Virus record (IMG/VR): IMGVR_UViG_3300025132_000322 | Location: 1 to 22,993 of that record | DNA: 22,993 nucleotides | Source of the DNA: a virus | Strand: one strand, 5' to 3' | Shown here: one piece after another, positions 12,995 through 22,899 of the stretch | Numbering within the stretch: position 1 is the stretch's first letter | Layout of the letters: each line of letters opens with the position of its first letter | The notes under the pieces: model-generated | Database searches by the model: none | Told to the model about the DNA's origin: nothing | What the model saw: only the letters and a program-made list of their open reading frames with translations | Translations under genes and position numbers: made by a program

Positions 12995-13222
12995 ATGGAA
13001 AGTATAGAAAAACACATCGAAGTAGACAAAAAGATCGTAGAAGATCCTTTAGCTAACCCTGCTGCTCGCAGACATGCTAAGGAAGAACTTCACGAACTTG
13101 AAGTTTATGCCGAACATCACAAAGAAGAGATCGAAGCAGGGGATCATCATGACCCTAATGCACTAGAACTATTCTGTGATATGCACCCTGACGAACCAGA
13201 ATGCTTGGTTTATGACGACTAA
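12995..13222 (+). CDS. cp12: CP12-like Calvin-cycle regulator (host-derived metabolic gene)
   Basis: The 75-residue, highly charged protein ends LELFCDMHPDEPECLVYDD. This is the signature C-terminus of CP12, with cysteines C61 and C70 spaced C-x8-C and the closing YDD. CP12 is a small redox-switched protein of cyanobacteria and plants that ties GAPDH and phosphoribulokinase into an inactive complex in the dark. The middle (RRHAKEELHELEVYAEH) corresponds to the helical core, but the usual N-terminal cysteine pair is absent. Only the GAPDH-binding loop is retained. It has its own strong ribosome site, AGGAG at 12984-12988, six nt from the ATG, unlike its coupled neighbours. It sits between the gp27 and gp5 genes and would help hold back host carbon fixation during infection. 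Cyanophage CP12 genes are known. Confidence 0.8.
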   Translation: MESIEKHIEVDKKIVEDPLANPAARRHAKEELHELEVYAEHHKEEIEAGDHHDPNALELFCDMHPDEPECLVYDD

Positions 13223-19248: not shown

Positions 19249-19577
19249 TACACTATCCTTATTGGTCATGTTATGATGGCCTTGGACAAAAATACTGCGA
19301 TTGTAGTCATGAAAAATATGCAATCAGAACTCTAGAGTTGCATGAAGGTGAGGGATTTACTTATAGAAGAATAGATGCTCCCAAACCATTACCACCTGAG
19401 ATCATTGATGTAGATGCACAAAGAGAGGGTGAGTTGCCTGGGCAACAGGGATTACCTTCGGCAACAGAGAGACTACATGATGACATGAGAAAGGCAATTA
19501 TAGATGCCGCCGTAAATGGTTACGACAAAGTATTAGAACAAAGTGATTCACAAATTATAGATGATACATTACATTGA
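19245..19577 (+). CDS. small protein with N-terminal Cys cluster, unknown function
   Basis: A 110-residue protein. The N-terminus MIHYPYWSCYDGLGQKYCDCSHEKY has C9, C18, C20 and H22, which could bind a metal, though no known zinc motif fits exactly. The rest is acidic, with a Pro-rich middle (DAPKPLPPEIIDVD) and a helical C-terminus. It overlaps the structural gene upstream by ATGA and the oxygenase gene downstream by 17 nt, so it is translated within the operon. No function can be assigned. Confidence 0.65.
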   Translation: MIHYPYWSCYDGLGQKYCDCSHEKYAIRTLELHEGEGFTYRRIDAPKPLPPEIIDVDAQREGELPGQQGLPSATERLHDDMRKAIIDAAVNGYDKVLEQSDSQIIDDTLH

Positions 19578-20196
19578 TTGCCAAAAAGAATTTTTAGATT
19601 GGTCTAATTATGACCTATCAAAAGACGAAGTATACGTTATAGATTACATGTTTCCGCCTTGGTTTGTTCATCAAGTCGATGAAATGGTAATGACAGGATA
19701 CAACTGGTTCTGGGGTCATACCAGTGGATATGCCGAAGATGGTAGAGATGTCGGTGCAGATCCAACGTGGCCAGAAGCACCAGCCTTAAAACAACAGATA
19801 TTTCCTCCAGACAGAAATGATATCGCACAGGATAGTGCCTTTAAAATGATCTACAGTGCCATTATGAATACTCTACCATTTGAAGTAGAACTGGGAGAGA
19901 TAATGATAAATGGGCAACAGTGGATACATAATACGACACCACATCAGGATTGTACATGTGACAATGGCCTTAGTTTCTGTTACTATGTTAACCATTTCTG
20001 GAACCCAGAATGGGGTGGACAACTTATGGTAAAATTAAATGACGAGTGGCATGGTATAGACCCTGCCCCAGGCAGAGTCATATTTTTTAAAGGTAATATA
20101 TGGCATCATGGTATGCCACCAAATGAAAAGTATCGTGGACTAAGATCTAGTCTGGTGTATAAAACAATGAGAACAGTGCCTTTACCATCTAAATGA
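19561..20196 (+). CDS. 2-oxoglutarate/Fe(II)-dependent oxygenase
   Basis: A 211-residue protein with the iron-binding facial triad of the 2OG-Fe(II) oxygenase superfamily: H128-Q-D130 in TTPHQDCTCD, and distal H182 or H183 in NIWHHGMPP. R195 in YRGLRSSLVY is the candidate 2-oxoglutarate-binding residue. The strand NPEWGGQLMVKL and PAPGRVIFFKGN match the double-stranded beta-helix fold. These enzymes hydroxylate proteins, nucleic acids or small molecules; the substrate is unknown. It lies in a run of such enzymes downstream of the baseplate genes, common in cyanophages. Start ATG at 19561 overlaps the gene upstream; the stop overlaps the next gene (ATGA). Confidence 0.85.
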   Translation: MIHYIDCQKEFLDWSNYDLSKDEVYVIDYMFPPWFVHQVDEMVMTGYNWFWGHTSGYAEDGRDVGADPTWPEAPALKQQIFPPDRNDIAQDSAFKMIYSAIMNTLPFEVELGEIMINGQQWIHNTTPHQDCTCDNGLSFCYYVNHFWNPEWGGQLMVKLNDEWHGIDPAPGRVIFFKGNIWHHGMPPNEKYRGLRSSLVYKTMRTVPLPSK

Positions 20197-20717
20197 AACA
20201 AATCTTTGGTATACCCATCTTTGAAGATGAGGTTGATATAAGTAAATTTGATAATATCCCTCATGCCCCACTAGAACCAACTTGGGATTCTGGTGTTCCT
20301 TCTACATTTGGAACGCAGAAACAACAAGACGTTCCAGAGGAAATTTGGTCATATTTGTCTGGTGTAGTGGAGAGAAACCTTTTCCCAGCACAACTAATGG
20401 GAAAGAATGCTAGGTTTGGAAATATATGGAAGAATGTATATAAGAAACATGATTATCAGGATGCTCACATACACCCTCATAGTCAGTGGAGTTATGTCAT
20501 ATATGTTGATGTAACGTCAAAGACATCATTCTTTAATCCTTCAATTCATAACATTCAGAATCATTTTGGTTGCACTTTGCCTCAGTTTCCGTTAGACTAT
20601 AAGCCTAAATTAGGACCTGGGCATATAATTATATTCCCATCATTCCTAATGCACATGGTCAACTCAGGTAATGAGGGAACCACAATATCTGGTAACATTT
20701 ACATGGAGTATCATTAA
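20193..20717 (+). CDS. putative 2OG-Fe(II) oxygenase, HxH variant
   Basis: A 174-residue protein opening MKQIFGIPIFEDEVD. It contains NIWKNVYKKHDYQDAHIHPHSQWSYVIYVDV and a distal GPGHIIIFPSFLMHMVNSGNEGTTISGNIYM. This resembles the 2OG-FeII_Oxy_5 type found in phages and marine bacteria (W-N-y, then H-x-H, then FPS-hydrophobic-H-x-V, then S-x-N). The metal site would use H92, H94 and H154. The arginine usually just before ISxN is replaced by threonine (TTISGN), so 2OG binding may differ or be lost. It is ATGA-coupled to the oxygenase before it. Confidence 0.7.
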   Translation: MKQIFGIPIFEDEVDISKFDNIPHAPLEPTWDSGVPSTFGTQKQQDVPEEIWSYLSGVVERNLFPAQLMGKNARFGNIWKNVYKKHDYQDAHIHPHSQWSYVIYVDVTSKTSFFNPSIHNIQNHFGCTLPQFPLDYKPKLGPGHIIIFPSFLMHMVNSGNEGTTISGNIYMEYH

Positions 20718-21019
20718 TGGCAAAAGAAAATAGAATGACAAAGGAGGAGTACCTCAAGAAATGCGAGGAAGTAGAAGATACTGCCTATGCAGAACAGGGA
20801 CACCCTCAAACATTTGGAAACAATCTATTACTTCAAAATATTGATGCTTTTGGTGCTGAGATTGCTAAACTGGTTACTGCTGTAAGACAGTTAGAGAGAT
20901 CGGCGAATGATGCTGAACTCAGGATTATTGGTCTTGAAAAAGAAATTGAACTACTATCTAGGGAGGTTGAAATTGGTAAAACGCACACACACGATAACAA
21001 AGAAGAACCCACAACATAA
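20717..21019 (+). CDS. coiled-coil protein, unknown function
   Basis: A 100-residue hydrophilic protein starting in a TAATG overlap with the oxygenase gene. Residues about 37-85 (LLLQNIDAFGAEIAKLVTAVRQLERSANDAELRIIGLEKEIELLSREVEI) form a clear heptad coiled coil. The tail is polar (GKTHTHDNKEEPTT). It may be an oligomeric structural or chaperone protein; I know no named family for it. Confidence 0.65.
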   Translation: MAKENRMTKEEYLKKCEEVEDTAYAEQGHPQTFGNNLLLQNIDAFGAEIAKLVTAVRQLERSANDAELRIIGLEKEIELLSREVEIGKTHTHDNKEEPTT

Positions 21020-21122
21020 TCAGATATGGGAATGGGAAGAGACTCCAGAACTAGCGGCATATATTGCCAAACAAACTGGCAAACAGGTGTTAAAGGATGC
21101 CCCTAAGATACCCGAATCTTAA
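20973..21122 (+). CDS. possible small protein with TTG start
   Basis: The frame has a 49-residue reading from a TTG at 20973, preceded by AGGGAGG (20960-20966) at a 6-nt spacing, an unusually good ribosome site for this operon. The part beyond the coiled-coil gene reads IWEWEETPELAAYIAKQTGKQVLKDAPKIPES, which looks protein-like and covers the otherwise empty 21020-21096. An ATG start at 20907 would lie entirely out of frame inside the coiled-coil gene and is less likely. Alternatively it is a frameshifted extension of the coiled-coil gene, though I see no clear slippery site. Confidence 0.4.
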   Translation: MVKRTHTITKKNPQHNQIWEWEETPELAAYIAKQTGKQVLKDAPKIPES

Positions 21123-21684
21123 AGATCATATATTTGAGTATGATTTGCTATCTCATCAGGAATGTGATGAGATAGTTTCTATTTTAGATTCTCGTGAATG
21201 GGGTGACTTCATGTGGTATCAGGACCAGAAACATATTGATCTTGATAAAGAATCAAAGATGAAGTCAACAGTAGATTCCCCAGAGTCAACAGCCATAATA
21301 CAACCTCATATAACTGATGAGTTGCATCGTGCCTTTCATGAAAAATATAATTATTATAATGTTGGGCCTGGTGGTAGTGGGTCATTTTGGGAAGCTAGCT
21401 CAGGTATAAAATACAATAAGTACGCTGTTGGCGATTATCTTAGTCCTCACTACGATCACATTCATTCCCTCTTTCAAGGACAATTTAGAGGGATACCTGT
21501 CACAAGTGTGGTAGGTGTATTGAATGATGACTTTGAAGGCGGTGATTTTATATTTTGGGAAGAACACACTGTCAATATAAAGAAGGGAAGTGTGTTAGTA
21601 TTTCCAGCACTGTATCTGTTTCCACATGAAGTAACTCCAGTTACAAAAGGAGTCAGATATTCTTGGATACAATGGATTGTATAG
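21097..21684 (+). CDS. 2OG-Fe(II) oxygenase, prolyl-4-hydroxylase type
   Basis: A 195-residue protein with the P4H-like layout. The N-terminal lead is LKDHIFEYDLLSHQECDEIVSIL; the metal site is H118-Y-D120 in YAVGDYLSPHYDHIHS, with FEGGDFIFW and VNIKKGSVLVFPALYLFPHEVTPVTKGVRYSWIQW after it. H177 completes the triad and R187 is the 2OG-binding residue. All key residues are intact. Start is ATG 21097, overlapping the small upstream frame by 26 nt. Its stop lies just before the tmRNA gene. Protein, perhaps virion, hydroxylation is possible; the substrate is unknown. Confidence 0.85.
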   Translation: MPLRYPNLKDHIFEYDLLSHQECDEIVSILDSREWGDFMWYQDQKHIDLDKESKMKSTVDSPESTAIIQPHITDELHRAFHEKYNYYNVGPGGSGSFWEASSGIKYNKYAVGDYLSPHYDHIHSLFQGQFRGIPVTSVVGVLNDDFEGGDFIFWEEHTVNIKKGSVLVFPALYLFPHEVTPVTKGVRYSWIQWIV

Positions 21685-21858
21685 TCCTGATGTACGACTC
21701 AAAAAGACATGTAGGTGGTGTGATCGACATTCTGGACAGGGGTTCGATTCCCCTCACCTCCACCAAGGGGGTGCCACGGCTTTCGACAGGGTATACGGAG
21801 CATGACTGAAAACCTGCTCGGAGAGCAAACCACAGATGCAAAATCATCTGACACTGCT

Positions 21859-21933
21859 GCGAATAACATCGTAGCGTTCTCTCGTGTTTTCACAGAGAAA
21901 CTTGCCCGCACTAGCGAACTCGCTACTGCCTAA
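21859..21933 (+). other. tmRNA proteolysis-tag reading frame
   Basis: From GCG at 21859 to TAA at 21931-21933 the frame encodes a 24-residue tag beginning ANNIVAFSR and ending SELATA. The ANNIV start matches cyanobacterial tags; the length (usually about 10-16) and the LATA end, rather than LAA or VAA, are unusual. The resume codon is inferred by that similarity. Confidence 0.75.
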
Positions 21934-21977
21934 GGGGCAATCGGGGATTGGTCACTCCTTGTTAACCAAGTGACCGT

Positions 21978-21996
21978 AGGGGGCCTTGCCCCCTTT
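21978..21996 (+). terminator. intrinsic terminator after the tmRNA
   Basis: AGGGGGC (21978-21984) pairs with GCCCCCT (21988-21994) around a CTT loop, a 7-bp GC-rich stem followed by TTTC. It would end both the tmRNA and read-through from the tail operon. It could also be the last helix of the tmRNA coding piece; the two are not exclusive. Confidence 0.7.
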
Positions 21997-22016
21997 CATA
22001 TATAAAATAAAACTTT

Positions 22017-22205
22017 ATGCGTTTACAATTTTGGTATTCTAAAGGTGTAAAGCAGTGGCATTGGACACTACACACCAGACATTACGCTCCCAAAGGGGAG
22101 AAATATTACCACACTTCTGGATCAGGAACTGATGTAAGAGAGGTTATGGATAGGGTTGCAACAGAGGTCGAACATTTAGTATCAGAAAGAAACAAAGATG
22201 TTTGA
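22017..22205 (+). CDS. small hypothetical protein
   Basis: A 62-residue protein, MRLQFWYSKGVKQWHWTLHTRHYAPKGEKYYHTSGSGT, then a helix DVREVMDRVATEVEHLVSERN. The strand-strand-helix pattern with many aromatic and basic residues suggests a small folded domain; I do not recognise it. It begins 20 nt after the terminator with no visible Shine-Dalgarno and overlaps the following gene by 8 nt. TATAAAATA lies only a few bases before the ATG, so its promoter is unclear. Confidence 0.6.
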   Translation: MRLQFWYSKGVKQWHWTLHTRHYAPKGEKYYHTSGSGTDVREVMDRVATEVEHLVSERNKDV

Positions 22206-22899
22206 ATTAAGTGATGAGTTAGAAGTTATTGCTATCAATCAAATTGGCAAGGATAAAAGAAGTGCCATGTTGATAGATAATTTCTACAAAAATCCTGATG
22301 AAGTAAGAAATTTAGCACTCAAGTTGCCAAAGAGAGAAGATATACCTTTGGTCAACCATCATAGTGGCACTAGATCAGTATATGAAACTGATGAGTTGTT
22401 TAAAAATACTCAGAGATTCTTTAAAGAGGTTTTATATGATGATGACTTTTGGGGTAGACCTACGGATAAGAATTTTGTAGAAAAGAATATGTCGTTTATG
22501 CCATTCTTAGTTGATTGGATAAATCAGGATACAATCGCAAAACAACCACTACAATTATTACCACATCAATTATACTATCCAAATAACCCAAGTCCATTTC
22601 AATTTACTGTAGAAATTTTTCTGAACAAAAATATGACTTCTCAAGGTGGCACTGATATATGGGCATTTGCTGGTAAGACTACTATTGAAGAGGACATGAA
22701 GAATATGTACGCAGATGCTGATGCCTTTTCTCTCAGAAAAGATGTATATGAATCAGTATTAGCTTGGAGACAACAGATGATGTTTGGAATGGAATTTAAC
22801 AGAGCAATCATTATGCCCTCTGATATATTACAAGCACCATTTGTCACGTCAGGTATGTACGAGACAGAAGATAGACTGTGCCAGAGGATATTCTTATAG
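22198..22899 (+). CDS. DUF6445-like / oxygenase-fold protein
   Basis: A 233-residue protein. The N-terminal AMLIDNFYKNPDEVRNLALKLP followed by SGTRSVYET resembles the DUF6445 family, whose members look like distant 2OG-Fe(II) oxygenases. A central segment, LPHQLYYPNNPSPFQFTVEIFLNKNMTSQGGTDIWAF, fits the fold's core strands. The C-terminal FNRAIIMPSDILQAPFVTSGMYETEDRLCQRIFL is where a distal metal histidine would be, but no histidine is there. No complete HxD...H triad is visible, so it may be catalytically inactive or use another site. It overlaps the upstream gene by 8 nt. Confidence 0.6.
   Translation: MFELSDELEVIAINQIGKDKRSAMLIDNFYKNPDEVRNLALKLPKREDIPLVNHHSGTRSVYETDELFKNTQRFFKEVLYDDDFWGRPTDKNFVEKNMSFMPFLVDWINQDTIAKQPLQLLPHQLYYPNNPSPFQFTVEIFLNKNMTSQGGTDIWAFAGKTTIEEDMKNMYADADAFSLRKDVYESVLAWRQQMMFGMEFNRAIIMPSDILQAPFVTSGMYETEDRLCQRIFL

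What the first reader, a model, noticed from the sequence alone, without database searches (positions are those of the whole stretch)
21700..21997. Phage-encoded, circularly permuted tmRNA of cyanobacterial type
Seen directly: T arm and CCA precede the 5' acceptor strand. The two strands pair over 7 bp with G-T at the third pair (alanine identity), and D-loop, P2 pairings, tag frame and terminal hairpin are all present in permuted order. Established: cyanobacteria use permuted two-piece tmRNA. Inference: the phage took it from a host and carries it to rescue ribosomes or tag proteins during infection, perhaps when host mRNA is being degraded.
Basis: partly seen in the sequence, partly recalled or inferred. 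Interest (0 to 1): 0.88.

Follow-up and report, generated by a model that had tools for sequence, protein, structure and literature searches.

The report
Cyanophage tmRNA with lengthened tag
This virus of marine cyanobacteria carries its own split ribosome-rescue RNA (tmRNA); that is a known kind of phage gene, but this lineage has rebuilt the peptide tag the RNA encodes and folded its start codon into a hairpin that cyanobacterial hosts lack.

Summary
Window 21690-21992 (+) matches Rfam cyano_tmRNA (RF01851, 97.7 bits, E 1.4e-25) and tmRNA_permuted, and ARAGORN calls a permuted tmRNA. The window is a fragment of a T4-like cyanophage close to S-SSM7/S-SSM6a, which have the same gene at the same place, annotated as a hypothetical protein. 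Phage two-piece tmRNAs are already known (PMC9004378), so the kind is not new.

The gene is not a plain copy of a host gene. It scores 97.7 bits against about 300 for three picocyanobacterial tmRNAs. It belongs to a large viral lineage, 128 loci here, with three features: 6-7 extra codons at the start of the tag (none in 386 cyanobacterial-phylum genomes); a hairpin closed by the resume codon (41 of 41 unique sequences, with compensated changes; 0 of 12 hosts); and tag ends that often change host VAA to ATA, VTA or ATV. In 21 of 127 relatives a tRNA gene sits inside the tmRNA's intervening segment.

Most likely it is a working tmRNA that uses host AlaRS and SmpB during infection. The consequence of the altered tag is unknown. 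Verdict: a new variant of a known kind.

The parts
21690..21992 (+). permuted tmRNA gene (precursor as modelled by RF01851)
   Evidence: cmscan 97.7 bits, E 1.4e-25; ARAGORN
21714..21734 (+). P2 helix, 5' strand, in the acceptor (3') piece; pairs with 21787-21807
   Evidence: 16 of 17 pairs standard by the RF01851 alignment; C21728-A21793 is the exception
21738..21754 (+). T arm (GGUUCGAUUCC loop), 5 pairs
21755..21761 (+). 3' acceptor strand CACCUCC (U at the G3-U70 pair)
21762..21766 (+). discriminator A, encoded CCA and a 1-base intervening segment
   Evidence: CCA is encoded only in the window, L358, L413, L429 and L432 among the loci examined
21767..21773 (+). 5' acceptor strand GGGGGUG (start of the mRNA-like piece)
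21774..21786 (+). D-loop equivalent (CCACGGCUUUCGA)
   Evidence: alignment
21787..21807 (+). P2 helix, 3' strand
21815..21827 (+). small helix UGCUC/GAGCA upstream of the tag
   Evidence: RF01851 alignment, 5 of 5 pairs
21833..21850 (+). phage-specific resume-codon hairpin CAGAUG-CAAAAU-CAUCUG; the G of the resume codon is its last pair
   Evidence: fold -5.4 kcal/mol, z -8.4; stem of 4 or more pairs in 41 of 41 unique extended-tag sequences, 0 of 12 hosts
21838..21933 (+). tag reading frame, 31 codons and UAA: AKSSDTAANNIVAFSRVFTEKLARTSELATA; extension = first 7 codons (21838-21858)
   Evidence: frame-0 stops in 0 of 64 tag sequences, frame +1 in 47 of 64, frame +2 in 64 of 64
21855..21876 (+). 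second tag hairpin over ...AANNIVA
   Evidence: in relatives GCU...GUAGC and GCA...GUUGC interchange as compensated pairs
21877..21899 (+). third tag hairpin UUCUCU...AGAGAA, seen in S-SSM7-like phages
   Evidence: predicted fold of window and relatives
21912..21925 (+). fourth tag hairpin UAGCG-AACU-CGCUA near the tag end
   Evidence: hosts also fold a hairpin at the end of the tag
21950..21975 (+). 3' domain hairpin GGUCACU...AGUGACC
   Evidence: fold; counterpart in RF01851
21978..21994 (+). terminal G+C-rich hairpin
   Evidence: fold; RF01851 3' helix
21097..21684 (+). upstream neighbour: 2OG-Fe(II) oxygenase-like gene
   Evidence: phrog_61, E 1.9e-32; same neighbour in S-SSM7
22198..22899 (+). 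downstream neighbour: minor coat protein-like gene
   Evidence: phrog_1644, E 1.3e-33; the 7 close relatives with enough flank all have the tmRNA upstream of it

Best explanation
It is a working two-piece tmRNA of a T4-like cyanophage. Shown by sequence: permuted gene order, a conserved tRNA-like domain with the alanine identity pair, A at -4 before the resume codon, and an open tag frame under codon constraint. Inferred: host tRNA-processing enzymes cut the transcript at the short intervening segment, giving an acceptor piece and an mRNA-like piece that stay paired through the acceptor and P2 helices; host AlaRS charges it and host SmpB delivers it, since no phage SmpB was found. It would enter ribosomes stalled on broken messages during infection and add a phage-specific tag. 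Inferred further, with low certainty: the resume-codon hairpin must be melted before tagging, and the longer tag with changed ends alters how host proteases treat tagged proteins.
For: Covariance-model hits and ARAGORN call. Compensated acceptor stems, 8 versions, with G3-U70 invariant. Tag frame: no in-frame stops in 64 tag sequences while frames +1 and +2 have them in 47 and 64, and entropy is concentrated at third codon positions. A at -4 before the resume codon in all 123 loci with a 7-codon extension, as in hosts. Resume hairpin in 41 of 41 unique sequences against 1.3% in within-sequence shuffles, with stems AGAUG/CAUCU, AUCUG/CAGAU and GACG/CGUC. Same locus in S-SSM7 and S-SSM6a and in the 7 close IMG/VR relatives with enough flank. 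No SmpB in 17 tmRNA-carrying phage records, with a working control.
Against: No expression, processing, charging or tagging data. No promoter stronger than chance was found near the gene. One P2 pair is a mismatch (C21728-A21793). Hosts already have a tmRNA, so the benefit of a second one is unclear.
Confidence: 0.75

Rival explanations
1. Decoy: the RNA binds SmpB or occupies ribosomes and so blocks the host tmRNA, as proposed for the tRNA-like-domain-only tmRNA of mycobacteriophage DS6A; tagging itself is not the point.
For: A phage precedent exists: DS6A-like molecules inhibit host tmRNA (PMC4131195; PMC11915505). No phage SmpB is encoded.
Against: A decoy needs no tag frame, yet the frame is kept open and under codon constraint with tag tails of very different sequence.
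Confidence: 0.1
2. Tag reprogramming (compatible with the best explanation, not exclusive of it): the main selected function is the altered tag, which changes the fate of stalled proteins (slower or different proteolysis) in favour of the phage.
For: Tag ends change from VAA in 42 of 43 host tags to ATA, VTA, ATV, VAV and others in about two thirds of viral loci; the extended tag matches none of 386 cyanobacterial-phylum genomes.
Against: About a third of viral loci keep VAA (40 of 123), and the tag codons also serve RNA hairpins, so tag changes may follow RNA structure. No ClpP in 17 phage records.
Confidence: 0.3
3. Relic: a host tmRNA picked up by chance and drifting without function.
For: Low covariance-model score compared with hosts (97.7 against about 300 bits).
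Against: Compensatory changes in the acceptor, resume hairpin and tag hairpins, an open frame, and conservation across many phages.
Confidence: 0.02

Closest known systems
tmRNA of Synechococcus phages S-SSM7 and S-SSM6a (Lipsvirus)
   Same: Same locus and neighbours, 92% identical over 98% of the query, same extended tag class
   Different: Their tag tail is ILTREFARTDELVTA; acceptor CAUCUCC/GGGGAUG; CCA not encoded. Annotated as a hypothetical protein, not as tmRNA
Permuted two-piece tmRNA of Synechococcus/Prochlorococcus (RF01851, cyano_tmRNA)
   Same: Gene order, tRNA-like domain, G3-U70, A at -4, AN(N/K)IVxFSR tag core
   Different: Host tag is 16 aa ending VAA, with no extension and no resume-codon hairpin; host genes score about 300 bits
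Two-piece tmRNAs of other marine phages (Melnitz, Mosig, AG-345-P14; PMC9004378)
   Same: Phage-encoded tmRNA; 53 two-piece structures were reported, 50 from marine or aquatic phages
   Different: Melnitz has the alphaproteobacterial form with a glutamine riboswitch; AG-345-P14 is of the cyanobacterial type and carries the extended tag. The passages of the paper that were read do not discuss tag sequence
'Helix m' of the mRNA-like region in other tmRNAs (PMC1168896)
   Same: A helix proposed to hide the resume codon and to be melted, perhaps by protein S1
   Different: Called weakly supported there; the cyanophage hairpin is supported by compensated changes
Mycobacteriophage DS6A tRNA-like-domain-only tmRNA
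   Same: Phage-encoded tmRNA-derived RNA
   Different: Lacks a tag frame; the gene here has a long one

Membership tests
cyano_tmRNA (RF01851) | Covariance-model score above gathering cut-off over the full model | tested here: met
   97.7 bits against 70, model 1-288
cyano_tmRNA (RF01851) | Permuted order: T arm and acceptor 3' strand before acceptor 5' strand and tag | tested here: met
cyano_tmRNA (RF01851) | 7-bp acceptor stem with G3-U70 alanine identity pair | tested here: met
   7 of 7 pairs; conserved in relatives
cyano_tmRNA (RF01851) | P2 helix joining the two pieces | tested here: met
   16 of 17 standard pairs in the window
cyano_tmRNA (RF01851) | Tag frame with cyanobacterial core AN(N/K)IVxF(S)R | tested here: met
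   AANNIVAFSR
cyano_tmRNA (RF01851) | Host-like tag start and end (resume Ala directly before N(N/K)IV, C-terminal VAA) | tested here: not met
   7-codon extension and C-terminal ATA; a property of the host members examined, not one that defines the family
cyano_tmRNA (RF01851) | Mature RNA in two pieces | not testable with these tools
   needs RNA from infected cells
tmRNA-SmpB trans-translation | SmpB partner | tested here: inconclusive
   No SmpB gene in 17 tmRNA-carrying phage records, several of them fragments; host SmpB would have to serve
tmRNA-SmpB trans-translation | Resume codon with A at -4 upstream | tested here: met
   invariant in 123 viral loci and in the hosts examined
tmRNA-SmpB trans-translation | Aminoacylation with alanine and addition of the tag on ribosomes | not testable with these tools
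   needs biochemistry

The most novel reading that the evidence does not exclude
Cyanophages keep their own branch of tmRNA whose reading frame starts inside a conserved hairpin and whose lengthened, re-ended tag redirects the fate of stalled proteins during infection: a viral reprogramming of bacterial ribosome rescue rather than a borrowed host gene.
Probability: 0.3. Interest if true: 0.75.

Novelty: new variant of a known kind. Interest (0 to 1): 0.55.

Why it matters
Why phages carry tmRNA is open. This lineage offers a natural experiment: the rescue machinery is kept with compensated changes, while the tag and the resume-codon region have been rebuilt. Isolated phages (S-SSM7, S-SSM6a, S-CAM1, S-CAM3, Sf-FS3) with cultured Synechococcus hosts carry it, so phage tagging during infection can be tested directly. 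The genes are annotated as hypothetical proteins or left unannotated in the records seen, so the feature is easily overlooked.

Tried and rejected
Encoded CCA and very short intervening segment as special signs: rejected, since Prochlorococcus also has about 6 bases there and only 5 distinct viral loci encode CCA. Alternative resume codons at AANNIV: rejected, they lack A at -4. Phage SmpB or ClpP partners: none in 17 records. Promoter evidence: sigma-70-like and T4-late-like matches are no more than chance. Literature on phage-encoded tmRNA tags: nothing found beyond PMC9004378, PMC4131195 and PMC11915505. An exact DNA pattern of the acceptor region gave only six viral contigs; ARAGORN called a non-cyanobacterial tag in one of them (L102) and the others were not examined.

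Full report
Observation. RF01851 (97.7 bits, E 1.4e-25) and RF04321 (73.6 bits) both hit the named place, and ARAGORN calls a permuted tmRNA with the tag AKSSDTAANNIVAFSRVFTEKLARTSELATA. Reading the pairs from the RF01851 alignment, the acceptor has 7 of 7 standard pairs with G-U at pair three, the T arm 5 of 5 and P2 16 of 17. CCA is encoded, and one base separates it from the 5' acceptor strand.

Origin of the window. It is a 22,993-base IMG/VR virus fragment. Megablast joins it to S-SSM6a (55% of the window, 81.6% identity) and S-SSM7 (50%, 80.9%), T4-like Synechococcus phages of the genus Lipsvirus. The tmRNA lies between a 2OG-Fe(II) oxygenase-like gene and a small gene followed by a minor coat protein-like gene. 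In S-SSM7 the same stretch is annotated as hypothetical protein SSSM7_025. The close relatives found by the minor coat protein (L003-L008 and L010) all carry the tmRNA; L009 lacks the upstream flank.

Relatives. Pattern scans of IMG/VR with the T arm, the AANNIV tag core and a host-like tag, the neighbour-gene search and BLAST of annotated phages gave 131 viral loci with a cyanobacterial-type tag, the window itself and some contigs fetched twice included. 128 have 6-7 codons inserted between the resume alanine and AN(N/K)IV; three (L085, L095, L445) do not. Annotated isolates with the gene are S-SSM7, S-SSM6a, Sf-FS3, S-CAM1 and S-CAM3, with the single-cell virus record AG-345-P14.

The extension is real coding sequence. 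A at -4 is invariant before the proposed resume codon in the 123 loci with a 7-codon extension, as in hosts, and is missing before the alternative start at AANNIV. No in-frame stop occurs in 64 tag sequences, while frames +1 and +2 have stops in 47 and 64; third codon positions carry most of the variation. In a sample of 386 genomes of the cyanobacterial phylum, 184 match a host-type tag pattern and none matches the 7-codon extended pattern.

Resume-codon hairpin. The G of the resume codon closes a stem of 4 to 6 pairs with a 6- or 7-base loop in 41 of 41 unique extended sequences, in 0 of 12 host sequences and in neither of two unique viral sequences without extension; within-sequence shuffles give it 1.3% of the time, and exchanging flanks among sequences leaves on average 28 of 41. 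Three compensated versions exist. Folding gives -5.4 kcal/mol, z -8.4, for the window. A weakly supported 'helix m' over the resume codon was proposed for other tmRNAs (PMC1168896). The rest of the tag also folds into hairpins, with an extra one in S-SSM7-like phages.

Tag ends. Host tags end VAA in 42 of 43; the 123 viral loci counted end ATA 42, VAA 40, VTA 20, ATV 11, VAV 5 and others. What this does to proteolysis is unknown.

Tree. Leaving out the tag extension and tag tail, the 25 host sequences form one branch (100/99); the window lies among 15 S-SSM7-like rows (100/95) and within larger all-viral sets. A recent transfer from a picocyanobacterial host is not supported. The alignment has only 151 columns, many inner branches are weak, and host sampling is mostly Prochlorococcus and Synechococcus.

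Mechanism. Function as a tmRNA is inferred from conservation. Host AlaRS and SmpB are assumed, since no phage SmpB was found in 17 records. Expression timing is unknown.

Prior knowledge. PMC9004378 reports 53 two-piece tmRNA structures among phage genomes and a tree in which cyanobacterial tmRNAs cluster with those of their phages. PMC11915505 lists 79 bacteriophage tmRNA sequences and one tRNA gene inside an intervening sequence, in a nominally archaeal genome. The main-text passages read do not describe the extended tag or the resume hairpin; their supplements were not available here, so prior listing of the tags cannot be excluded.

Noticed in passing
L358, L359, L351, L356, L402, L396 and others: A complete tRNA gene (Tyr GTA or Asn GTT) lies inside the intervening segment of the permuted tmRNA in 21 of 127 extended-tag loci (ARAGORN confirms it in the six loci named). 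PMC11915505 mentions one such case, a tRNA-Ala in a nominally archaeal genome.
   Followed up: partly
NC_015287 21009-21227 and the S-CAM1, S-CAM3, S-SSM6a, Sf-FS3 counterparts: The tmRNA gene is annotated as a hypothetical protein, or left unannotated, in the public records.
   Followed up: yes
L443, L444, L446, L447, L448: Viral tmRNAs with a 6-codon extension but a host-like core and tail (AKNIxxANKIVRFSRQxAPVAA), looking intermediate between host and phage forms.
   Followed up: partly
L085, L095, L445: Viral contigs with a cyanobacterial-type permuted tmRNA and no tag extension.
   Followed up: no
L346, L371, L382, L425, L375: T-loop GTTCAA occurs with D-loop TTTAGAC or TTTTGAC instead of TTTCGAC, as if the two loops change together.
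   Followed up: no
window 19561-21684: Three ORFs upstream of the tmRNA match phage families of 2OG-Fe(II) oxygenases (phrog_81, phrog_61) or one labelled endonuclease V (phrog_274).
   Followed up: no
L445 11738-11823: PhotoRC-II RNA motif (RF01717, 52.5 bits) on the same viral contig as the unextended tmRNA.
   Followed up: no
window 12995-13222: Small ORF at the place where S-SSM7 has a gene annotated CP12.
   Followed up: no
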